Shown here piece after piece: positions 252 to 63,773 of a stretch of DNA of 64,000 nt. The stretch is from a virus. The stretch covers positions 17,146 to 81,145 of IMG/VR virus record IMGVR_UViG_3300031673_000014. One strand, written 5' to 3'. A program made the translations under genes and the position numbers. Within the stretch, counting starts at the first letter, position 1, and each line of letters starts with the position of its first letter. The notes under the pieces are model-generated. The model saw only the letters and a program-made list of their open reading frames with translations, searched no databases and was not told the origin of the DNA.

Positions 252-1025
252 ATGAAGGAAATACGCTTAGTTGGAAGAGCTAAAAATAACATTTTTCTAT
301 CTATCTGTGAGAAAAAAGGATTATTCACAAATAGGGTGATAGCTGATTACTTTGGTATACCGGAAGGTAAAATAGGAAAGATTATTAATCTGGCTAAAGG
401 CTCTGTTTTAAACTCAAAAGGGGATTACTTAGAGTCATCGAAGATTATAGCAAAAAAGCTAAATCTACTTGAAGAAGATTTGTTTCCATTTTCATTATAC
501 AGCATTGAAGAGACCAAATTTAACCTAGAGATGAACATTGAAGACAGGGTTAAAATTTTAGACGATTCTTATATATTTGACAGGATAGAAAGCAATCAAT
601 TAAAAAAATCTTTAAACGATATACTTGATACAATCCCACCGAGGGAAAAGCTTGCAATCGAACACAAATACGGTCTTAACGGAGAAGAACCTAAAACCTT
701 AGAAGCCGTCGGAATGATCCTTAATGTTTCCAAAGAAAGATGCCGACAAATAATATGTAAGGGCGAAAGGAGACTAAGACATCCTAAAAGAGTATCCAAA
801 CTAATACAATTTATGGATTTCGAGCCTACCGACGGGGATGGAATAGGCTCTAGTGTTATTAAGATAAAAAGATTAAAAGAAGAAATAAAAGATCTTTATA
901 GAAAGGTTTCTTCTGGGGAAATATCCCGAAAGGAATATAGAGACTTTAATAGTCGTTTAAATTGTTTACAGATTATGCTCAATCGAGAGATATTAGAACT
1001 TAAAACAAAAAAGGGGGAATTATGA
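252..1025 (+). CDS. Sigma-70 region-4-like transcription regulator
   Basis: This is a 257-residue protein. Residues about 117-180 look like sigma-70 region 4: 'TIPPREKLAIEHKYGL', then a helix-turn-helix 'TLEAVGMILNVSKERCRQI' and 'GERRLRHPKR', as in primary sigma factors. Residues 25-80 look like a separate XRE-type helix-turn-helix. I see no region 2, so it is not a normal sigma factor. It may recruit or redirect RNA polymerase, perhaps at the late promoters. The start follows AGGGGGAATT. It is the first gene after a spacer-operator promoter, so it is probably controlled with other operator-bearing genes. Confidence 0.7.
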   Translation: MKEIRLVGRAKNNIFLSICEKKGLFTNRVIADYFGIPEGKIGKIINLAKGSVLNSKGDYLESSKIIAKKLNLLEEDLFPFSLYSIEETKFNLEMNIEDRVKILDDSYIFDRIESNQLKKSLNDILDTIPPREKLAIEHKYGLNGEEPKTLEAVGMILNVSKERCRQIICKGERRLRHPKRVSKLIQFMDFEPTDGDGIGSSVIKIKRLKEEIKDLYRKVSSGEISRKEYRDFNSRLNCLQIMLNREILELKTKKGEL

Positions 1026-1608: not shown

Positions 1609-1775
1609 ATGGCACAAGCCGCAACTGTTTTAATTATTCAAATATTGATCGAATTCTTCCAACAAAAGAAGAAGTTGACTTTCTCTGTAAAGATATCAAA
1701 ATTATAGATAAAGTTGCTGAGAACGCCATCCTAAGCGGTGATTTAGAGACAAAAATAAATCCTGTTGACAAATAA
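1605..1775 (+). CDS. Small hypothetical protein (56 aa)
   Basis: The ATG overlaps the stop of the kinase gene (ATGA) and follows GGGGGAATTGTT. The product begins 'MNGTSRNCFNYSNIDRI' and matches no family I know. Its last codons contain the TTGACA of the next promoter. Confidence 0.6.
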   Translation: MNGTSRNCFNYSNIDRILPTKEEVDFLCKDIKIIDKVAENAILSGDLETKINPVDK

Positions 1776-1793
1776 ATATTAAAGACTTAAAAT
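1765..1793 (+). promoter_or_regulatory. Predicted late promoter ahead of head genes
   Basis: TTGACA at 1765-1770 and TAAAAT at 1788-1793 are 17 nt apart. Transcription would start near 1800 and meet a strong terminator at 1826-1859, making a leader of about 60 nt unless the terminator is bypassed. Confidence 0.55.
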
Positions 1794-1825
1794 CATAACA
1801 TAAATCTAACGGGAGTTCGATAACG

Positions 1826-1859
1826 AGACCTGTTCCTTAACTGGGACAGGTCTTTTTTT
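1826..1859 (+). terminator. Intrinsic terminator directly before the protease start
   Basis: AGACCTGTTCC (1826-1836) pairs with GGGACAGGTCT (1843-1853) with one G-U pair, then seven T follow. The T tract ends at the start codon of the next gene, so the hairpin could act as a terminator and could also mask the start. Confidence 0.8.
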
Positions 1860-3353
1860 ATGCTTATGATAGAAAACGATTATATTTACACAGAAGCAAG
1901 AATCTCGAAAAGCATTGTCGGCGAACAATGGGAAACTGATAAGGCCGGAAATCCTATTATAATAATCGAGGCTTCTAATGAGGATCTTGACTATGAGGGC
2001 GAACGGGTCCTGAGATCTGCTCTATTAAACAGTAGAGATTACTTTCTTCAAAACGGCGTTATTTCTTATGATCACAAACATCTACCTTCCTCAGACAATC
2101 ACTCATGGGATCCTGAATGGAATTCCGAGAAATATGTAATAGGGAAACCTATAGATGCATGGGAAGGAAAAGACGATAACGGAAAAAAAGTAGTTCTTGT
2201 AAAAGCTGTCCTTTCCCGGTCAAATGCTATTGCCAAAGAGATAATTGGAAAACTTCGCGACGGACTAGAAACTGTTAAAGCTTCCGTTGGCGGTCGTAAA
2301 GTGAAAAAAGCGTTTAAAATGGATACGAACACATATAAAGAAGTACCTACCATTATGGCGGTAGACTGGGATGAAGTCGCTTTGACTTACAAGCCAGTTA
2401 ATCAGTCTCTTGGAGCTACAACTTTATGTCCGAAGGAATTTGTGAAATCTCTTACTGCCGGTTCAAGTGCGAATCCTGCAGAGATGTCCGGGGGAAATGC
2501 CTTACAAGTGCAATCCTTAGAGGGGTCTCCTGTTAGATCCTTAATGACTAAGTTAAGAAATAAAGAGATAAGCAAAAGTAGTGATGCAATTAATCATCTT
2601 GTGAATCTTGGTTACTCGACAGAGAAAGCCGGGAATGTCCTCAAGGTGATATTGAAAAAATATTTAGGAGATATTGTTATGGCAAAAAACGACAACGTTA
2701 ATGACATCATCGATTCCTCCACCGATGAGCTTTTAAAAGCCCTGGAAGACCTTGAGGGCGGTGGTGATGTTCTTATCAAAGGTATTGATAAGATGAAAGA
2801 TGATGGCGTGTACAAAAACCGTGGTGGTCACATGTACATGAAAAAAGCCGATGGAAAATATGAGAAGATGGATGAAGATTCACCTGATTATGACGGCGAA
2901 GATGATGATGATGATGACAATGATGAAGACGACATGGGTAAATCCCTTGGCGAAGAAGTCATTGATGCAACTGAAGTCATCGAAAGTATGGAAAAATCAA
3001 TCAAAAAACTTGTTGGAATGGTTGAATCCCTTTCGACAACTGTTGAAAAACAGAGTTCTTTGATGAAATCTATTGGGGCTGTTACTGCCGAAGATTCTGT
3101 TTTGATTAAATCAATTGCAGGAACTCCGCAACCGAGACAGACAACCAATGGGTTAAAAGTTGAACCAAGATTTCAAAAATCTCAGGTAGACGCGCTGATG
3201 AAAGTAACAACTGAATCGTTGATCAAATCAATGATTGATGCAGATATTGATGGAAACACAATGGCTGCGGCAAACCTTGCTTTCAGAAAAGGCGGAATTC
3301 AGGCTGTTGTGGCCAACGTTCCCCGAGTTGCTGAACTGCTGGTGAAGGAGTAA
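1860..3353 (+). CDS. Prohead protease fused to scaffold domain
   Basis: This 497-residue protein has an N-terminal prohead-protease/XkdF-like domain: 'SNEDLDYEGERV' near 39-50, a His in 'ISYDHKH' (68-74), a probable catalytic Ser in 'VKASVGG' (139-145) and the typical end 'WDEVALTYKPVN' (170-181). An acidic Asp-rich linker near residues 340-360 and a coiled-coil region follow, typical of a scaffold. Residues 198-221 repeat a motif found in the capsid protein. The start is uncertain: ATG at 1860 and 1866 both lack a clear Shine-Dalgarno and abut a terminator. Protease and scaffold in one gene recalls lambda C/Nu3. Confidence 0.8.
   Translation: MLMIENDYIYTEARISKSIVGEQWETDKAGNPIIIIEASNEDLDYEGERVLRSALLNSRDYFLQNGVISYDHKHLPSSDNHSWDPEWNSEKYVIGKPIDAWEGKDDNGKKVVLVKAVLSRSNAIAKEIIGKLRDGLETVKASVGGRKVKKAFKMDTNTYKEVPTIMAVDWDEVALTYKPVNQSLGATTLCPKEFVKSLTAGSSANPAEMSGGNALQVQSLEGSPVRSLMTKLRNKEISKSSDAINHLVNLGYSTEKAGNVLKVILKKYLGDIVMAKNDNVNDIIDSSTDELLKALEDLEGGGDVLIKGIDKMKDDGVYKNRGGHMYMKKADGKYEKMDEDSPDYDGEDDDDDDNDEDDMGKSLGEEVIDATEVIESMEKSIKKLVGMVESLSTTVEKQSSLMKSIGAVTAEDSVLIKSIAGTPQPRQTTNGLKVEPRFQKSQVDALMKVTTESLIKSMIDADIDGNTMAAANLAFRKGGIQAVVANVPRVAELLVKE
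2679..3353 (+). CDS. Possible nested scaffold protein from internal in-frame start
   Basis: Within the protease gene an in-frame ATG (codon 274) follows TTTAGGAGATATTGTT, a clear AGGAG ribosome site. Translation from it gives a 224-residue protein beginning 'MAKNDNVNDIID' that holds only the acidic linker and coiled-coil scaffold part. Lambda Nu3 is made in this way from inside gene C. This is an inference from the sequence signal. Confidence 0.5.
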   Translation: MAKNDNVNDIIDSSTDELLKALEDLEGGGDVLIKGIDKMKDDGVYKNRGGHMYMKKADGKYEKMDEDSPDYDGEDDDDDDNDEDDMGKSLGEEVIDATEVIESMEKSIKKLVGMVESLSTTVEKQSSLMKSIGAVTAEDSVLIKSIAGTPQPRQTTNGLKVEPRFQKSQVDALMKVTTESLIKSMIDADIDGNTMAAANLAFRKGGIQAVVANVPRVAELLVKE

Positions 3354-3357
3354 TAAG

Positions 3358-4791
3358 ATGGATGTAAACAATTTTGCAACAAGCAATTACGGGTTTGGCG
3401 GTGGCGTAGGAGTTGGTAATATTGATGCTGAAGCATTGAATAAAGCTCTTACTGCCGGTGATTCTGCTAATCCTGCCGCAATGGGAACTGGTGGTAATAC
3501 CCTTCAGTTCGAGTCACTTGAATCTCAGCTTATTTCGGCTCTTGCTGAAAGAGTAGAAGATTTTAAACTGATGAAGATGCAACCTAAAAACAAGGTCGGA
3601 TCTACTGTTCATCAGTACACACAGGCAACTAACTCAGGAGAGTATGAAGGGCTCGGTACTGCCGAACTTGGCGATCCCATTGAGTCAACGTCTGTATTCG
3701 CTAGAAATACTCGTAATGTGAAGTATTTCCAGACAAAAAGAGAAGTTTCAATTCAGGCTCAGTCATTAAGCCCTGTAATCGGCGGTGCGGCTGAAGCAAC
3801 CGAAGAAAGACTTGGAACACATGTTATGTTGAAAGGTACAGAGTACTATTGTTTCCATGGAAACGAAGCGGTTTCTCCAAACCTTCCAAGTGGGTATCCT
3901 GCACAGATTAGAGCTGAAGCTCCAAACAATGTTTTTAACATGAATGGACTGAAAGTTTCTGACGCTGGCGGTGAGGCTGTTATAGAAGCTGCAATCGGTT
4001 CTATTTATGAGCTCGGTGGTGAAGTATCAGATATGTTCTTCCCCCCTTCCATTGCTAATGACTGGCAGAATCTTTTAAAAGACAGATACCGATACAATTC
4101 TGGTGACAAAACAGCCGGAACAAAATTGACTACTTTTCAGTCAATGTACGGTCGAGACATTTGGATCTCTGGTAGAGCCGGAATCGACAAAATGTATAAG
4201 ATCAAAACAAGGCCTGTAGCGTCTTCTTTGACGACTTTAAGACCTACAGCTCCGACTTTCGCTCTCGCTGCTCAGGCTTTAACGGCTCCCGGAACTCCCG
4301 GTTTTGTAACTGCTACTGCAGGAACTTACCGATATACAGTTTTTGCTGTTGATGCAAGTGGTCTAGTTTCTGCCGCCGCTGCCGAGGCGAATCTCGCTCT
4401 TACTGCCGGTCAGGAAGCAAAAATAACAATCACTCCCGGTATTGCTCCTTTGGCAACTGGTTATATTGTTTGTCGTGGAAAGAAAGACGTTACTACAGGA
4501 ACTGATGTTCGTGAAATGTATAGAGTCGCTGATAGTGGTGCTGCTACTACTGTAACTCTTGATCAGAATGCTGAACTTCCGGGAACTGCAGAAATGCTTC
4601 TTCTTTCTTCTGAAGGCGTTGAAAACTCTTATCAGTGGGATTCGTTCCTTGATCTTAGAAGATTCAACCTTGGGCCAACAAGAGCGTCAATTCCTTTCCT
4701 ACTCTTATGGTATGGAACACCTGACCTGAAGATCGCCAACTTTAACGGGATCATCAAAAACGTCGGACACAGTGGTATTGACTGGTTCTAA
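3358..4791 (+). CDS. Major capsid protein
   Basis: A 477-residue protein directly after the protease/scaffold, with ribosome site AAGGAG. The N-terminal ~55 residues are Gly/Ala-rich and carry 'LTAGDSANPAAM' (31-42), shared with the protease, suggesting a processed arm. A region around residues 285-400 is Ala/Thr/Gly-rich with 'YRYTVFAVDASGLVSA' typical of Ig/fibronectin-type domains, apparently inserted before the final 'GVENSYQWDSFLDLRRFNLG' segment. A terminator follows, which fits a very strongly expressed gene. Identity comes mainly from position and composition. Confidence 0.8.
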   Translation: MDVNNFATSNYGFGGGVGVGNIDAEALNKALTAGDSANPAAMGTGGNTLQFESLESQLISALAERVEDFKLMKMQPKNKVGSTVHQYTQATNSGEYEGLGTAELGDPIESTSVFARNTRNVKYFQTKREVSIQAQSLSPVIGGAAEATEERLGTHVMLKGTEYYCFHGNEAVSPNLPSGYPAQIRAEAPNNVFNMNGLKVSDAGGEAVIEAAIGSIYELGGEVSDMFFPPSIANDWQNLLKDRYRYNSGDKTAGTKLTTFQSMYGRDIWISGRAGIDKMYKIKTRPVASSLTTLRPTAPTFALAAQALTAPGTPGFVTATAGTYRYTVFAVDASGLVSAAAAEANLALTAGQEAKITITPGIAPLATGYIVCRGKKDVTTGTDVREMYRVADSGAATTVTLDQNAELPGTAEMLLLSSEGVENSYQWDSFLDLRRFNLGPTRASIPFLLLWYGTPDLKIANFNGIIKNVGHSGIDWF

Positions 4792-4800
4792 AAATAACAA

Positions 4801-4820
4801 GAGCCCTTCGGGGCTCTTTT
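4801..4820 (+). terminator. Intrinsic terminator after capsid gene
   Basis: GAGCCC (4801-4806), UUCG loop, GGGCTC (4811-4816) and TTTT. It probably lowers transcription into the connector genes after the capsid gene. Confidence 0.85.
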
Positions 4821-25750: not shown

Positions 25751-26374
25751 TTATTTATTCTCTTTAATATATTTCTTCCTGAAATTATCTATGTTCTGCA
25801 TTGTCATAACTGCTTGAGGGTAGTTTCTACTCTCGGAGACGTTTGTTCTAAGAGTCAATAATCCAAGATTTAAAGATTTTTGAGAGGGTATATTTTTCCC
25901 GGTCAACAACCCATTATCTCTCATAATGTCAAATATTTCTGTTTGGCTTAACCCTAAATGTTTGCCAGCATCACGAATAGAATAATGTTTTGATTCATCT
26001 CTCAGGGCAGCATCAGCAAGTGCAGCTTTTGGTTTTAGAATTGCATTTTCTTCCTCTAGTTTCTTATACCTCTGAATAGCGAGCTCATAACCTTTTACGA
26101 TCATCAAAGCTTCTTCTGCCTGTGTTGTTGGCAACTTCCTACGATCATCGGAAGTGATTAAAGAACTATTTTCCTTAATTCTCATTGAAACTGCCGTTAC
26201 TTCATATTCGTTCAAATAAGTAATCTTACCATTCTTAACTTTATCAGGAAAAATCTCATTAACCCTTTTTATTACAAGGGCATAACTTACTCCTAATGAA
26301 TCTGCAACTTCTTTTATGGTCATTGTTTTTTCTGGAAAATCTTCTTGTGGAAATAATGCAAGATCTCTGTTCAT
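25751..26374 (-). CDS. KilAC-domain antirepressor with N-terminal helix-turn-helix
   Basis: 207 residues from the ATG after AAGGAGTTTTTT. N-terminal 'MTIKEVADSLGVSYALVIKRV' is a helix-turn-helix; a coiled region ('YKKLEEENAILKPKAALADAAL') leads to a KilAC domain ('YSIRDAGKHLGLSQTEIFDIMRDNGLL'). The ribosome site is buried in a perfect 18-bp hairpin and a 20-codon leader frame precedes it. A longer form from GTG at 26407 is possible through coupling to the leader. Confidence 0.75.
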   Translation of the reverse strand: MNRDLALFPQEDFPEKTMTIKEVADSLGVSYALVIKRVNEIFPDKVKNGKITYLNEYEVTAVSMRIKENSSLITSDDRRKLPTTQAEEALMIVKGYELAIQRYKKLEEENAILKPKAALADAALRDESKHYSIRDAGKHLGLSQTEIFDIMRDNGLLTGKNIPSQKSLNLGLLTLRTNVSESRNYPQAVMTMQNIDNFRKKYIKENK

Positions 26375-26379
26375 AAAAA

Positions 26380-26455
26380 ACTCCTTAAGTCTTCCTGTAG
26401 CGACCACTAAAAAGCTAGTTCGGAAAACTTTATAGGGCAGGAAGACTTAAGGAGT
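26380..26455 (-). promoter_or_regulatory. RBS-sequestering leader hairpin of the antirepressor
   Basis: Positions 26380-26397 and 26438-26455 are perfect 18-bp inverted repeats around a 40-nt loop. In the minus-strand mRNA the downstream arm contains the AAGGAG of the antirepressor, so the site is fully paired. A smaller inner stem (CTAaAAAG/CTTTaTAG) extends the structure. Confidence 0.85.
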
Positions 26456-42842: not shown

Positions 42843-42915
42843 TGGGAGCTGGTGAAATATGGGATCACGGCAATACAAGTTATGGCAATATGCGGTTCAA
42901 GTCCGTGGCTTCCAA
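42843..42915 (+). tRNA. tRNA-shaped element inside the large RNA
   Basis: All four arms can be drawn with standard spacing: acceptor TGGGAGC/GCTTCCA, D arm GTGA/TCAC with a GG-containing loop, anticodon arm, 4-nt variable loop and T arm TGCGG-TTCAAGT-CCGTG. The anticodon loop ACAAGTT has C instead of U33 and the anticodon stem has one A-G mismatch, so charging (formal anticodon AAG) is doubtful. No CCA is encoded. Confidence 0.5.
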
Positions 42916-43013
42916 TTGCCTCGCATGAGGTAAAACATAAAAGAAATATTAAGAAGTGTTTTGAATTAGAACAAACAGGTTTCTGACGGTTTCTTATTAT
43001 GTAATTCTCCTTA

Positions 43014-43054
43014 GCCGGATCGATGAAGAGGCACTTCGGTGATCCGGCGTTTTT
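43014..43054 (+). terminator. Intrinsic terminator ending the large RNA
   Basis: GCCGGATC (43014-43021) pairs with GATCCGGC (43041-43048), with an inner GAAG/CTTC stem, then GTTTTT. Confidence 0.9.
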
Positions 43055-43075
43055 ATTTCCAGAATCGGGGGATCT

Positions 43076-44333: not shown

Positions 44334-44507
44334 ATAAGTAGAACTTACAAAGATAGACTTCCTAAAAAGTACAGGAAAGGATATTGCTGGCTTTCGGACT
44401 CATATAATAATAAAATTCTTAGGAGGCGCATTGAAAGAAGTGATATACAAAATGGTTCATCTTTTAAAAAACTAGCGAATAAATTAGATGAATATGCAGG
44501 AATGTAG
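44334..44507 (+). CDS. Small basic ORF with ATA at the start position (57 aa)
   Basis: After unit 3 a 58-codon frame reads 'SRTYKDRLPKKYRKGYCWLS' and ends 'LDEYAGM'. At the expected start there is ATA, 8 nt from GGAG; no ATG, GTG or TTG lies near. Either ATA is used or the gene lost its start codon by one base change. Confidence 0.45.
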   Translation: MSRTYKDRLPKKYRKGYCWLSDSYNNKILRRRIERSDIQNGSSFKKLANKLDEYAGM

Positions 44508-44512
44508 GACAA

Positions 44513-44542
44513 GTCTATTTACTATAATAAATAAAAGGAGAC
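44513..44542 (+). repeat. Leader repeat unit 4
   Basis: GTCTATTTACTATAATAAATAAAAGGAGAC, same core as units 1-3, ahead of the gene at 44546. Confidence 0.8.
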
Positions 44543-44545
44543 AAT

Positions 44546-44782
44546 ATGATTTGTGATAGAAATAGTGAAGACATAATTAAATGTCATGCTTACAATAATG
44601 GTGAGTGCATGAACAGTGTTACGTGCGGTGGAATTATGGCTACTTCTCCAATTAAAACCATTCATAACAGAGTTTTTTACAGTTCTATAATAGATCCAAC
44701 GTTATATCATTGCGAACATTCTACTGCAAAAATAAGCAAATATCCCTACTGCCCTTTTTGTGGCGAGAAAATAGATAAATAA
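44546..44782 (+). CDS. Small zinc-ribbon protein (78 aa)
   Basis: C-terminal 'YPYCPFCGEKI' and several other cysteines ('CHAYNNGECMNSVTCGG') suggest a zinc ribbon. Last gene of the leader-repeat group; followed by a terminator. Confidence 0.6.
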   Translation: MICDRNSEDIIKCHAYNNGECMNSVTCGGIMATSPIKTIHNRVFYSSIIDPTLYHCEHSTAKISKYPYCPFCGEKIDK

Positions 44783-55008: not shown

Positions 55009-55701
55009 ATGAAAAATATAGTTATTTTAAATGGGAACTCTGTTTACACGACAACTCTTATAATAGCTGAGGGTGTTGGTAATGATCACAGGAATGTAAT
55101 GAGGTTGCTTAAAAGGTATTCAAGTACAAAGATTCTTTCGACCTTTGAAACCGCAAAAGTATCAAATGGTGGTAGACCTGTAGAATATGCTATTCTAAAT
55201 GAAACACAAGCTACATTTTTAGTCACTCTTATGAACAACTCTGAAATAGTGGTGTTGTTTAAGGAAGCTCTTACAAATGCGTTTGTGAGGCAAAGAGAGA
55301 TTATTTCAGGGCTTATTCAACAAAGAAAAGATCCAGACTGGCAAAATATAAGAAAGGATGGAAAGACCGTATACATTCAAAAGACGGATATAATAAAAAG
55401 ATTTGTAGACTATGCTACAAGTCAAGGAAGTAAGTCAGCTAAAATGTATTATATGAATTTTGCAAAAATGGAGAATTCTGCATTATTTTTCTTTGAACAA
55501 AAATATAATAACCTCCGAGAGATAATGACGATCAAACAATTAATGCAAGTAGCTACTGCCGATAGCGTAATTGAAAAGGCTATCCAAGATGGTATGGAAT
55601 CTGAAATGTATTACAAGGATATATATAAACAGGCAAAAGAGAGAATTATATCGTTTGCAGAGATTATAGGAAGATCGCCAATATTGGCACTGGGGGAATA
55701 G
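55009..55701 (+). CDS. rha: Rha-family phage regulatory protein
   Basis: 230 residues. 'TTTLIIAEGVGNDHRNVMRLLKRY' followed by 'GGRPVEYAILNETQATFLVTLMNNSE' is the Rha domain. Rha proteins are phage regulators that interfere with growth in some hosts. RBS AAGGTGGG. The C-terminal ~130 residues are helical. Confidence 0.85.
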   Translation: MKNIVILNGNSVYTTTLIIAEGVGNDHRNVMRLLKRYSSTKILSTFETAKVSNGGRPVEYAILNETQATFLVTLMNNSEIVVLFKEALTNAFVRQREIISGLIQQRKDPDWQNIRKDGKTVYIQKTDIIKRFVDYATSQGSKSAKMYYMNFAKMENSALFFFEQKYNNLREIMTIKQLMQVATADSVIEKAIQDGMESEMYYKDIYKQAKERIISFAEIIGRSPILALGE

Positions 55702-57343: not shown

Positions 57344-57372
57344 TTGACAATCCAAGTGAAAGGATATAATGT
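57344..57372 (+). promoter_or_regulatory. Predicted late promoter ahead of terminase
   Basis: TTGACA (57344-57349); -10 is either TATAAT (57365-57370, 15-nt spacer) or TAATGT (57367-57372, 17 nt). A terminator at 57414 follows. Confidence 0.55.
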
Positions 57373-57413
57373 TAATTTGGTTTTCATAATTTTCCTTTAT
57401 TTATTTTTACATT

Positions 57414-57446
57414 AGTCCCGGTTAGTGCAGCCGGGGCTTTTTCTTT
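57414..57446 (+). terminator. Intrinsic terminator in terminase leader
   Basis: AGTCCCGG (57414-57421) pairs with CCGGGGCT (57431-57438), with T-rich tail TTTTTCTTTT. Confidence 0.75.
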
Positions 57447-57530
57447 TATAATCATCCAAGTATTTAGTCTCAAATTTAACAAGATAAATCAGGGCTTTTT
57501 TTATCCGCAAATAGTGTGTATAATGATTTT

Positions 57531-59132
57531 ATGTGGACAGGTGAACAAAAAGTTGTCGTAGCAACGGCAGCACTAACGACAATGAATCCAGAGTTTAAAC
57601 TCGACTTCTGGCAGGACTGGTATTTAAAGTCCAATGAAAGATTTTTAGTTGTCAATAAGAGCCGTCGTATTGGATGGTCTTATATTACTTCTTTGAAGAG
57701 TGTAGTCGAAGCAAATTCCCCGGATGTCTATAAATATCAGAATGTTTTCGTTTCGTATGGTATGAACGATGCCATAGGAAAAATATCCGATGCCAGAAAT
57801 GCGTTAATGAATCTTCCGGACCGGTGGAGAAAAGAAATATCTTCTGATTCTAAAACATCACTTGAATTTTGGGATAAAGACAGAAAAAGTAAATCTCAGC
57901 TTATATCACTCCCTAATCGTACACTGAGGGGTTTTGGTACTTCTAATCCTTTCGGGGGAATCAGTCTCGATGAATTCGCTTTTCATCAAGATGATAAGAA
58001 AGTTTACGAATCAGCTTTACCGTGTCTCACAAGGGGCGGTTTGCTGTCAATTGGATCAACTCCTTTAGCAAAGGCCGGAATGTTTTATGATATCCTTTCT
58101 GACAAAGATAAATATGCGAGGTATCAAAGATTAAATATTCCCTGGTGGTGGGCTTCTGCTCTGTGTATCGATGTAAATACAGCTCTTAAAATAGCGCCTG
58201 ACTTAACCACGTGGGAACGGGTTGATCAATTCGGAACTGATATTTTAAAAGAAATATTCTCTTCTATGGGATTATCATCTTTTAAACAGGAATTTGAATG
58301 TGAATTCACCGATGAGTCCGAAGCTTTCATAACACTCGAAATGATTAAGTCCTGTACTCCTCAGCAAGTAGAACAGTATGAATATCAAAATATTGCTGAA
58401 TTACTCAATGGTGTAGATATTCCTGAAATATGTACCGGGTTTGATCCAGACGGACAACCGATATTTGAATCGGTAACAGCTCCGGCCTATGATCCTGAGA
58501 TCCATGGTGTGTTATTTGCCGGGTGGGATATGGGAAGGACTAAAGACGCTTCTGTATTTACATTAATCGGATATAAAGACGGGAAATTTCATGTCTGGAT
58601 GTCATACGAATTAAAAAATACTCCATTTGATGAACAGAAAGAATTTGCTTCTCTGGCATTGTCTTCACTTCCAATACAACAATTTTTAATAGATAAGAAC
58701 GGTCTCGGTATGGACTTTGCGGAATGGGCTGAAAAGAAATTTCCGACTATTGCTCATGGTGTCCAGTTTACCAACGAAACTAAAGAAGTTATGGCCAATA
58801 AAGTTTACCTGGGATGTGAGCGAAGAGAATATGTTTTCCCGATGAACAAAAAACTTCATGCAGATATCCATTGTATAAGAAAGACTCTTACTGCAATGAA
58901 ATTCAATAAGTATGATGGAAGTACCAAAGACTCTCATGCAGACCGTTTCTGGAGCTTGGCGCTTGCTACAATGGGAATTACGACAGAGAATAGTAATATA
59001 TCTCAATTTTATTCTCAGTATAGGAAAAATAAGGGTGAAACTAAAAAGAGTGTTAGAATATCGACAGGGAATCCCGAATTAGATAGAATCAAAAGAATGG
59101 TAAGAAGGGGTAATAGGCATGGTAGACGGTAA
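57531..59132 (+). CDS. terL: Terminase large subunit
   Basis: 533 residues. ATPase motifs: Walker A-like 'NKSRRIGWS' (42-50), Walker B 'ISLDEFA' (144-150), 'SIGSTP' coupling motif. Nuclease domain: Asp333 in 'AGWDMGRTKDAS' and Asp residues in 'DSHADRFWSLALA' near the end. It packages phage DNA through the portal. No clear Shine-Dalgarno; a TATAAT lies 9 nt before the ATG. Confidence 0.9.
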   Translation: MWTGEQKVVVATAALTTMNPEFKLDFWQDWYLKSNERFLVVNKSRRIGWSYITSLKSVVEANSPDVYKYQNVFVSYGMNDAIGKISDARNALMNLPDRWRKEISSDSKTSLEFWDKDRKSKSQLISLPNRTLRGFGTSNPFGGISLDEFAFHQDDKKVYESALPCLTRGGLLSIGSTPLAKAGMFYDILSDKDKYARYQRLNIPWWWASALCIDVNTALKIAPDLTTWERVDQFGTDILKEIFSSMGLSSFKQEFECEFTDESEAFITLEMIKSCTPQQVEQYEYQNIAELLNGVDIPEICTGFDPDGQPIFESVTAPAYDPEIHGVLFAGWDMGRTKDASVFTLIGYKDGKFHVWMSYELKNTPFDEQKEFASLALSSLPIQQFLIDKNGLGMDFAEWAEKKFPTIAHGVQFTNETKEVMANKVYLGCERREYVFPMNKKLHADIHCIRKTLTAMKFNKYDGSTKDSHADRFWSLALATMGITTENSNISQFYSQYRKNKGETKKSVRISTGNPELDRIKRMVRRGNRHGRR

Positions 59133-60621: not shown

Positions 60622-60650
60622 TTGACAACCAGCCCTATAGAATATATCTT
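60622..60650 (+). promoter_or_regulatory. Predicted promoter of a short leader RNA
   Basis: TTGACA (60622-60627), 17 nt, TATCTT (60645-60650). Followed by a 70-nt segment and a terminator. A 23-codon frame from ATG 60660 crosses the hairpin but has no ribosome site. Confidence 0.55.
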
Positions 60651-60676
60651 TAAAGCATGGATGAGCTTGCTCTCCT

Positions 60677-60720
60677 ACCCCGGCAACATATTCCCCTGAA
60701 TCTGAAAGCCGGGGTTCTTT
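60677..60720 (+). terminator. Intrinsic terminator after portal
   Basis: ACCCCGGC (60677-60684) pairs with GCCGGGGT (60708-60715), with a T-rich tail. Confidence 0.75.
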
Positions 60721-60755
60721 ATTTATAATACTTTCACGAATAACTAAAATAATGT

Positions 60756-60807: not shown

Positions 60808-61038
60808 ATGACAAATATTCAAGAATCGGTAATAAGAGCGACAATTTTTACAGAGATAAAATCTTTTTCTAACCAGGAAATAAAAGATATTATCCAAAAC
60901 AAAGCGAATGTTATTTTAAATGGCAGTCTTTGTGCGTCGGGTGATGTAGCGTTTACAGGAAAAGAACTTTTTTGTGGATCATATATAAATAATATTCTTG
61001 CTGTAGTCGATTATGAAGGGAACAGGCTTACGGCATAA
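60808..61038 (+). CDS. Hypothetical protein (76 aa)
   Basis: RBS CAGGGGGAATTT. Helical first half, 'VILNGSLCASGDVAFTGKELF' in the second. First gene of an operator-controlled unit inside the head module. Unknown. Confidence 0.6.
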   Translation: MTNIQESVIRATIFTEIKSFSNQEIKDIIQNKANVILNGSLCASGDVAFTGKELFCGSYINNILAVVDYEGNRLTA

Positions 61039-62669: not shown

Positions 62670-63773
62670 ATGAAAATAGTGAAACTGGAAATAAACGATA
62701 TCAATGATCTTAATAGGGCTGATAAGTTCCAGAAAGCTATTGATATCTTATCAAAAGAACTGAATATCCCGGCAACAATAGAACATAAAGAGCATGGAAA
62801 AGAAGAATTTCCCTTTATTGCTCAAAACGAATTATATGAAATGTATAAAACTCGTTTCGGTTTACTCATGGATGATCTATATTCCCGGGTATGTTCAACA
62901 GTCGGACTCCGGCCAATCTCTACTTTCAAGAAATCAATCGATCCTAAAGCGCCAAAGCTCGGTAAAGAGATATTATGGAATCCAGAGACAGGACTTCCAA
63001 TTACTCAAAAAGATCTTGACAGGCTCTTAGGTGCCGTTGATAAGTTCATGAATAGAAATAATCCCACAAAAGAATTTGTAATTAATCAGGCTGCCGTCTC
63101 CAGGATAATCTCGGATATGAGAAAAAAATCAGATATGGAAGCTTTGAGAAAAATTCCTCTTAAAGATGTTGTTTTCAAAAAAACAAGTTGGGATCAGTTC
63201 AAAGACTATACAGATATTAAAAACTTCTTCCCGAGTTCAGATATTAACCGGTTGAAATTCAGAGAGAGAATAGTCGGAAATTATATTCAGGATGTAAACG
63301 ATAAAACCAGAAAGGGAATAAGAGACATTCTTGATCAGGGATATATGGCCGGAAAATCAAAAGGACAAATATCTCAGGACCTATTCTATAAGTTTGGAGA
63401 CTTGAATAAAGACTGGGACAGGATAATTGATACTGAAGGTGTGAATATCTTTAATGCCGAATACATAGATGAGCAGAAAAGCGAATCCCTGCCCGGTGAG
63501 CCCTTGTATTTCGTTCGTAGAGAGTATGGCGATGCAAATACTTGTTCTTTCTGTATGGGCGCAGTACAGGATCAAATTATTGCTCGATGGTCTGATGTTC
63601 CCTTATCTGATGAAAATATAAATGATCCTATTGCCTCTATTGCTATCTGGGATGGGAAGAGTAACTATGGAGTTAAGAGGGATAGTTGGGCGTGGTCTGC
63701 TGGACCAAACCATCCCCGATGTCGCGGCTCATGGGATAGATACTATGAAGAACTGGGAGATATTGAATTATGA
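62670..63773 (+). CDS. Minor head protein (SPP1 gp7/Mu F-like)
   Basis: 367 residues. The C-terminal domain has 'DTEGVNIFNAEY', 'YGDANTCSFCMGAVQ' and 'NHPRCRGSWDRYY', the typical pattern of phage head morphogenesis proteins. Cysteines may bind metal. Weak ribosome site. Confidence 0.8.
   Translation: MKIVKLEINDINDLNRADKFQKAIDILSKELNIPATIEHKEHGKEEFPFIAQNELYEMYKTRFGLLMDDLYSRVCSTVGLRPISTFKKSIDPKAPKLGKEILWNPETGLPITQKDLDRLLGAVDKFMNRNNPTKEFVINQAAVSRIISDMRKKSDMEALRKIPLKDVVFKKTSWDQFKDYTDIKNFFPSSDINRLKFRERIVGNYIQDVNDKTRKGIRDILDQGYMAGKSKGQISQDLFYKFGDLNKDWDRIIDTEGVNIFNAEYIDEQKSESLPGEPLYFVRREYGDANTCSFCMGAVQDQIIARWSDVPLSDENINDPIASIAIWDGKSNYGVKRDSWAWSAGPNHPRCRGSWDRYYEELGDIEL

What the first reader, a model, noticed from the sequence alone, without database searches (positions are those of the whole stretch)
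1765..1859. Lambda 6S-like leader: promoter then terminator just before the head operon
A promoter is followed about 30 nt after its start by an 11-bp terminator whose T run touches the protease start codon. Similar promoter-terminator leaders lie before terL (57344-57446) and after the portal (60622-60720). In lambda, Q loads at the late promoter and reads through such a terminator. No Q homologue is recognised, so an unknown antiterminator is implied; the sigma-like protein is one candidate.
Basis: inference. Interest (0 to 1): 0.7.

Follow-up and report, generated by a model that had tools for sequence, protein, structure and literature searches.

The report
Three conserved short-RNA units in phage
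In an uncultivated phage, a strong promoter followed almost at once by a transcription stop signal just before the head genes is real and conserved in relatives; two similar units look like free-standing small RNAs, and one of them carries a loop that matches the ribosome-binding sites of phage genes.

Summary
TTGACA-17-TAAAAT (1765-1793) is followed by an 11-bp hairpin and T7 that touch the protease ATG at 1860. An unbiased scan of this phage and an 87.8-kb relative finds exactly three such units in each, at matching places (head operon, before terL, after portal); shuffles give none. Around the head leader (L1), three genomes conserve the promoter, a new box GGAGTTYGATAAC, the hairpin and the T-run, while the initially transcribed stretch and synonymous sites have drifted.

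The single lambda/Q reading does not fit all three. L2 and L3 are followed by separate promoters. The terL promoter ends 6-7 nt before ATG in every relative examined, so terL mRNA is probably leaderless. L3 looks like a small RNA: its terminator loop AUUCCCC is complementary to GGGGGAAU, an RBS motif strongly enriched in this phage. Relatives carry anti-Shine-Dalgarno loops at the same place, as in Listeria LhrC. The sigma-like gene is absent from the relative that has all three leaders. No Q or NusG homologue was found.

L1 is best read as a promoter-proximal attenuator fused to the protease ribosome-binding region. What controls read-through is unknown. Nothing was tested experimentally.

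The parts
1765..1793 (+). L1 promoter: TTGACA (1765-1770), 17-nt spacer, TAAAAT (1788-1793)
   Evidence: same hexamer positions and A-rich spacer in L002 (4411) and L014 (443)
1811..1824 (+). Conserved box GGGAGTTCGATAAC (consensus GGAGTTYGATAAC), 5' of the hairpin, Shine-Dalgarno-like at its start
   Evidence: 92-100% identical between three genomes whose 4-fold degenerate sites are 43-54% identical; exact-pattern scan of IMG/VR found only the two relatives
1826..1853 (+). L1 terminator-type hairpin, 11 bp, loop TTAACT
   Evidence: all pairs kept in 3 genomes, one compensatory G-C to A-U change
1853..1859 (+). T7 run, conserved, followed directly by the NTG start
1860..3353 (+). Head maturation protease (first gene of head operon)
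   Evidence: phrog_1028 E 7.7e-13
3358..4791 (+). Major head protein
   Evidence: phrog_752 E 1.2e-41
57344..57370 (+). L2 promoter TTGACA-15-TATAAT
   Evidence: 15-nt spacer kept in the relative (61420)
57414..57444 (+). L2 terminator hairpin and T-run, after a T-rich unstructured leader
   Evidence: counterpart at g1 61488
57519..57530 (+). TATAAT plus 6 nt directly before terL ATG (57531): probable leaderless terL promoter
   Evidence: same 6-7 nt spacing in seven relatives; g0/g1 scan
57531..59132 (+). terL (start revised from GTG 57516 to ATG 57531)
60622..60650 (+). L3 promoter TTGACA-17-TATCTT
   Evidence: at the same place in four relatives
60659..60675 (+). L3 small 5' hairpin (CUUG loop; UUCG loop in the relative)
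60677..60723 (+). L3 terminator hairpin with 23-nt loop and T-rich tail
60690..60696 (+). L3 loop AUUCCCC, complementary to the GGGGAAU of many phage RBSs
60756..60784 (+). Separate promoter TTGACA-17-TATATT for the gene at 60808
252..1025 (+). Sigma-like protein (Sigma70 region 4), not shared with the relative
   Evidence: PF04545 E 1.2e-9; phrog_351; no hit in g1

Best explanation
L1 is a conserved promoter-proximal attenuator of the head operon. A sigma70-type promoter starts an RNA about 60 nt long. A box GGAGUUYGAUAAC leads into an intrinsic-terminator hairpin whose U-run ends at the protease start codon, so terminator and ribosome-binding region are one element. By default most polymerases stop and leave a ~60-nt RNA. 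Something relieves the hairpin when head proteins are needed: a phage or host factor, or a 30S subunit bound at the GGAG box that blocks the hairpin. L2 and L3 are not leaders of the same kind. They are free-standing short transcription units, and L3 most likely yields a small RNA whose terminator loop (AUUCCCC) pairs with GGGGGAAU-type Shine-Dalgarno sequences of phage mRNAs. Shown: anatomy, conservation, non-chance pairing, separate downstream promoters, RBS motif and loop complementarity. Inferred: that the promoters and terminators are active, that read-through is regulated, and that L3 acts in trans.
For: Promoter-terminator pairing exceeds chance in two genomes and sits at three matching places. 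In L1 the promoter is 69-97% identical, the box 92-100%, the hairpin 71-86% and the T-run plus NTG 88-100%, against 43-54% at 4-fold degenerate sites and 28-44% in the initially transcribed stretch. Upstream genes are unrelated, with no significant similarity in the 400 nt before the -35. The spacings box-to-hairpin and hairpin-to-start are constant in 3/3, whereas promoter-to-box distance varies. L3: promoter plus terminator hairpin after portal in five genomes. The large hairpin loops of L3 in five genomes all hold an anti-SD 6-mer, against 2-5% of random windows. The g0 loop pairs with g0 RBSs far better than shuffled loops (42 of 90 RBSs at <= -10 kcal/mol, shuffles 6.4, 0/200). GGGGGAAT occurs 26 times against 3.5 expected, 19 of them just before a start codon.
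Against: No RNA data. Only three L1 sequences and one compensatory change; the shuffle control does not reach significance (164/500). For the relative g1 the L3 loop is not clearly better than shuffles (32/200). C/U-rich loops pair with purine-rich SDs in general, so target specificity is not shown, and part of the word list was chosen with the loops in view. The GGGGGA-class RBS is rarer in the structural operon, but not significantly (p 0.18 and 0.46). The host is unknown, so sigma70-type recognition and terminator strength are assumed.
Confidence: 0.5

Rival explanations
1. lambda Q / AlpA / GafZ-like antitermination at L1: a phage protein binds an element in the -35/-10 spacer, loads on RNA polymerase and lets it pass the terminator and later ones through the 20-kb head-tail operon.
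For: Same order promoter - short leader - intrinsic terminator - late operon. Spacer 16/17 identical between this phage and L014, and A-rich with shared blocks in g1. Such factors share no sequence (lambda Q, Q21, AlpA, GafZ: PMC6606751, PMC9371919, PMC11150451), so absence of a homologue says little.
Against: Q and AlpA need an early -10-like pause sequence, while the initially transcribed stretch of L1 is not conserved. No member of PF03589, PF06530 or PF02357 found. The strongest conservation is the box next to the hairpin, at a variable distance from the promoter. The sigma-like candidate is not shared.
Confidence: 0.2
2. Split ribosome-binding site: the conserved GGAG is the protease Shine-Dalgarno, and the hairpin between it and NTG folds to bring them together, as in T4 genes 25 and 38. 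The T-run is incidental.
For: Constant GGAG-hairpin-NTG spacing in 3/3 while promoter distance varies. No other good SD: only AGG inside the 3' arm. Linear spacing of 44-46 nt is cut to about 14-16 nt by the core hairpin, and to about 2 nt if AUAA pairs with UUAU. T4 precedent: 22 to 5 and 27 to 11 nt (PMC3014915).
Against: Spacing after folding of the core hairpin alone is long. An uninterrupted U7 directly after an 11-bp GC-rich stem is what a terminator needs and is conserved. The extended pairing would cover part of the start codon.
Confidence: 0.15
3. L1 is mainly a trans-acting small RNA, its conserved single-stranded GGAGUUYGAUAAC being the seed, and head genes are transcribed by occasional read-through.
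For: Same promoter-terminator architecture as L3. Phage small RNAs with trans functions are known (StxS and others, PMC12197685).
Against: Its single-stranded part does not pair with phage RBSs better than shuffles (149/200). The T-run abuts the head operon start with no room for another promoter.
Confidence: 0.1
4. Ordinary partial terminator plus constitutive promoter with no regulation, and the three units are unrelated accidents of phage intergenic regions.
For: Compact phages often pack promoters and terminators together (general knowledge); promoter-like sites alone are no more frequent than in shuffles.
Against: All three units recur at matching places in a relative whose synonymous sites have largely drifted; none of 60 shuffles contains one.
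Confidence: 0.05

Closest known systems
lambdoid late leader (pR' - tR' with Q; lambda '6S RNA'); AlpA; GafZ
   Same: Promoter, very short leader, intrinsic terminator, then the late or lysis operon
T4 gene 25 / gene 38 split ribosome-binding sites
   Same: Shine-Dalgarno-like GGAG and start codon separated by a hairpin at fixed spacing
   Different: Hairpin is followed by U7 and has terminator shape; spacing after folding is longer unless weak extra pairs form
Anti-Shine-Dalgarno sRNAs: Listeria LhrC, Staphylococcus RsaE, alphaproteobacterial ar14/ar15 ('cuckoo')
   Same: L3: own promoter, one or two hairpins including the terminator hairpin, C/U-rich loops complementary to Shine-Dalgarno sequences (PMC8079631, PMC10746234)
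   Different: Phage-borne; loops differ (AUUCCCC here, UUNNCUCCUUUU in relatives); no Rfam family reached
P1/P7 c4 RNA
   Same: Phage RNA whose loops pair near a phage ribosome-binding site (PMC12197685)
   Different: c4 is known to target one phage mRNA (ant); L3 has its own promoter and terminator and many possible targets

Membership tests
lambda Q-type late leader | Promoter followed within ~200 nt by an intrinsic terminator before the late operon | tested here: met
lambda Q-type late leader | -10-like sigma pause element in the initially transcribed region | tested here: not met
   no conserved element; the stretch is 28-44% identical among three relatives
lambda Q-type late leader | Q binding element in the -35/-10 spacer | tested here: inconclusive
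   spacer 16/17 identical between own phage and L014, partly kept in g1; no known binding protein
lambda Q-type late leader | Q or other known antiterminator gene in the genome | tested here: not met
   PF03589, PF06530 and PF02357 searches negative; Q proteins diverge, so weak evidence
lambda Q-type late leader | Terminated ~60-200 nt RNA in vivo and factor-dependent read-through | not testable with these tools
   no RNA data
LhrC / RsaE / ar14-15 anti-SD sRNAs (for L3) | Hairpin loops with UCCC or CCUCC anti-SD motifs, including the terminator loop | tested here: met
LhrC / RsaE / ar14-15 anti-SD sRNAs (for L3) | Match to the Rfam family above gathering score | tested here: not met
   no match at gathering; LhrC 19.5 bits against 110, RsaE 19.2 against 79, ar15 13.7 against 40 for the relative's L3
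LhrC / RsaE / ar14-15 anti-SD sRNAs (for L3) | Stable sRNA that represses mRNAs by RBS pairing | not testable with these tools
   complementarity only
T4-type split RBS (for L1) | SD and start codon joined by a conserved hairpin giving ~5-11 nt effective spacing | tested here: inconclusive
   fixed spacing 3/3; effective 14-16 nt by core hairpin, ~2 nt with weak extra pairs

The most novel reading that the evidence does not exclude
The phage switches translation with an RNA. L3, made from its own promoter near the packaging genes, masks GGGGGAAU-type ribosome-binding sites of many phage genes, while terL (leaderless) and the protease (SD and start separated by the L1 hairpin) escape by not using such sites. 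Relatives have retuned the L3 loop to CUCCUUU.
Probability: 0.15. Interest if true: 0.75.

Novelty: new variant of a known kind. Interest (0 to 1): 0.5.

Why it matters
It turns a single-sequence guess into a conserved, testable control region in an uncultivated phage lineage, with a defined box and hairpin to mutate. It separates three look-alike units into one operon leader and two probable small RNAs. If L3 does what its loop suggests, a phage would carry an anti-Shine-Dalgarno small RNA with a large set of its own genes as matched targets, a kind of control best known so far from bacterial chromosomes.

Tried and rejected
Sigma-like protein as shared factor: rejected for a shared mechanism, no tblastn hit in g1. 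Q and NusG families: negative; Pfam/PHROG scans of about 20 further conserved or regulatory-looking proteins gave an antirepressor, Rha, NinG, TetR-N and methylases but no antiterminator. Leader peptide in L1: no conserved start codon after GGAG. A long-range pairing of the L1 5' end with the start codon (GCAU/AUGC in L014, GCAA/UUGC in g1, aCAU/AUGc here): suggestive by eye, three sequences too few. A shared motif among L1, L2 and L3: none seen. Loop-by-genome duplex matrix: not specific, because all C/U-rich loops pair with SDs. Cis pairing of the L3 loop with the next gene's SD: seen in four genomes but not in L005, and generic SD complementarity explains it. More relatives of protease and head protein: only two contigs in IMG/VR; head-protein and portal scans of GTDB genomes found none. 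Portal-based scans added distant GC-rich relatives without L3. The terminator at 43014 follows a tRNA and was taken as ordinary.

Full report
What the window is. The window is bases 17146-81145 of an 81,145-base viral record. Structural genes have only distant relatives among named phages (TerL 34% to Brevibacillus phage Emery; head protein about 27%). Two IMG/VR contigs carry close head genes: IMGVR_UViG_3300027845_000349 (87,804 b, 'g1'; loci L002, L006) and IMGVR_UViG_3300035698_013432 (L014). Six further contigs with 63-75% identical TerL were found. g1 is broadly syntenic with the own record, 'g0'. The host is unknown.

The observation. At 1765-1859 there is TTGACA-17-TAAAAT, then about 26 nt after the predicted start an 11-bp hairpin, then T7 ending at the protease ATG. 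L2 (57344) and L3 (60622) are as described. A strict scan of both whole records finds exactly three promoter-terminator units on the plus strand in each, and none in 60 shuffles per strand. The three in g1 (4994, 61420, 66271) lie before the protease, upstream of tRNAs and terL, and after the portal (with a methylase-like gene inserted before it), the same places as here. This is more than chance.

Anatomy of L1. Alignment of the three genomes and comparison with synonymous sites show which parts are kept: -35 to -10 (69-97%), a box GGAGTTYGATAAC (92-100%), the hairpin (71-86%, all pairs kept, one G-C to A-U compensatory change) and T-run plus NTG (88-100%). Four-fold sites in the protease and head genes are 43-54% identical and the initially transcribed stretch 28-44%. 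No significant similarity remains in the 400 nt before the -35, so conservation begins at the promoter. Box, hairpin, U-run and start codon keep fixed spacing, while promoter-to-box distance varies between 13 and 17 nt. The hairpin folds strongly (about -21 to -25 kcal/mol for the leader). A weak SD (AGG) for the protease lies in the 3' arm, and the better SD-like GGAG lies before the hairpin.

Anatomy of L2 and L3. L2 has a T-rich unstructured leader and a terminator. terL in this phage and seven relatives has a -10-like hexamer ending 6-7 nt before ATG, with no SD, so its mRNA is probably leaderless and L2 is not its leader. L3 is followed about 33 nt after its T-run by another promoter, TTGACA-17-TATATT; L003 and L007 likewise have a TTGACA promoter right after the L3 terminator. 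L3 recurs after the portal region in g1, L003, L005 and L007. In L003 and L007 it folds into two hairpins, each with a 12-nt loop of the type UUNNCUCCUUUU; here and in g1 into a small hairpin (CUUG or UUCG loop) and a terminator hairpin with a 23-nt loop containing AUUCCCC.

The RBS class. The motif GGGGGAAT occurs 26 times in the own record (expected 3.5) and 18 times in g1 (expected 2.4), mostly directly before start codons. The L3 loop is its complement over 7 nt (8 in g1). In the own record the loop pairs with RBSs far better than shuffled loops; in g1 the excess is not significant. These genes include the sigma-like gene (252), 27703, 33373, 33724, 45552, 49604 and 50340. The class is scarce in the structural operon but not significantly so.

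Mechanism. For L1 I favour a promoter-proximal attenuator fused to the translation start. The T-run and hairpin are kept as a terminator would need, no promoter fits between hairpin and gene, and the box beside the hairpin is the best candidate for whatever relieves it (an RNA-binding factor, or a 30S subunit on GGAG). A lambda Q, AlpA or GafZ-like protein (PMC6606751, PMC9371919, PMC11150451) is not excluded: the spacer is well kept, and such proteins share no sequence. But the early pause element they use is not conserved, and no candidate was found. A T4-type split RBS (PMC3014915) explains the rigid GGAG-hairpin-NTG spacing and may act on read-through mRNA. For L3 I favour an anti-SD small RNA working like LhrC (PMC8079631) or ar14 (PMC10746234), without membership in those families.

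Limits. No RNA data, three L1 sequences, five L3 sequences, unknown host. All function statements are inferences from sequence.

Noticed in passing
57519-57533 and L003-L009 upstream of terL: A -10-like hexamer ends 6-7 nt before the terL ATG in this phage and seven relatives, with no Shine-Dalgarno: a probable conserved leaderless terL mRNA. The MuF-like gene at 62670 has TAAAAT + 6 nt + ATG, and g1 has TAAACT + 6 nt + ATG.
   Followed up: partly
RBSs at 252, 23239(-), 27703, 33373, 33724, 39819, 45552, 49604, 50340, 60808, 61548: Distinct ribosome-binding-site class AGGGGGAAUA-AUG, strongly enriched in this phage and in g1.
   Followed up: partly
4799-4818: Conserved hairpin with TTCG loop between the major head protein and the next gene (AAGAGCCC-TTCG-GGGCTCTT here; paired variants in g1 and L014), followed by TTTTAGGAG.
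   Followed up: no
L023 4557-4990 (g1): About 440 nt of apparently non-coding DNA upstream of L1 in g1, with another promoter-like site and a large hairpin followed by T6; no Rfam match at gathering.
   Followed up: no
42843-43070: tRNA-Leu(aag) followed by a conserved long-loop terminator and a gene with a GGGGGA-type RBS; similar arrangement in g1 at about 44385-44615.
   Followed up: partly
25751-26407, 55009-55701: Phage antirepressor (KilAC domain) and Rha-type regulatory protein genes.
   Followed up: no
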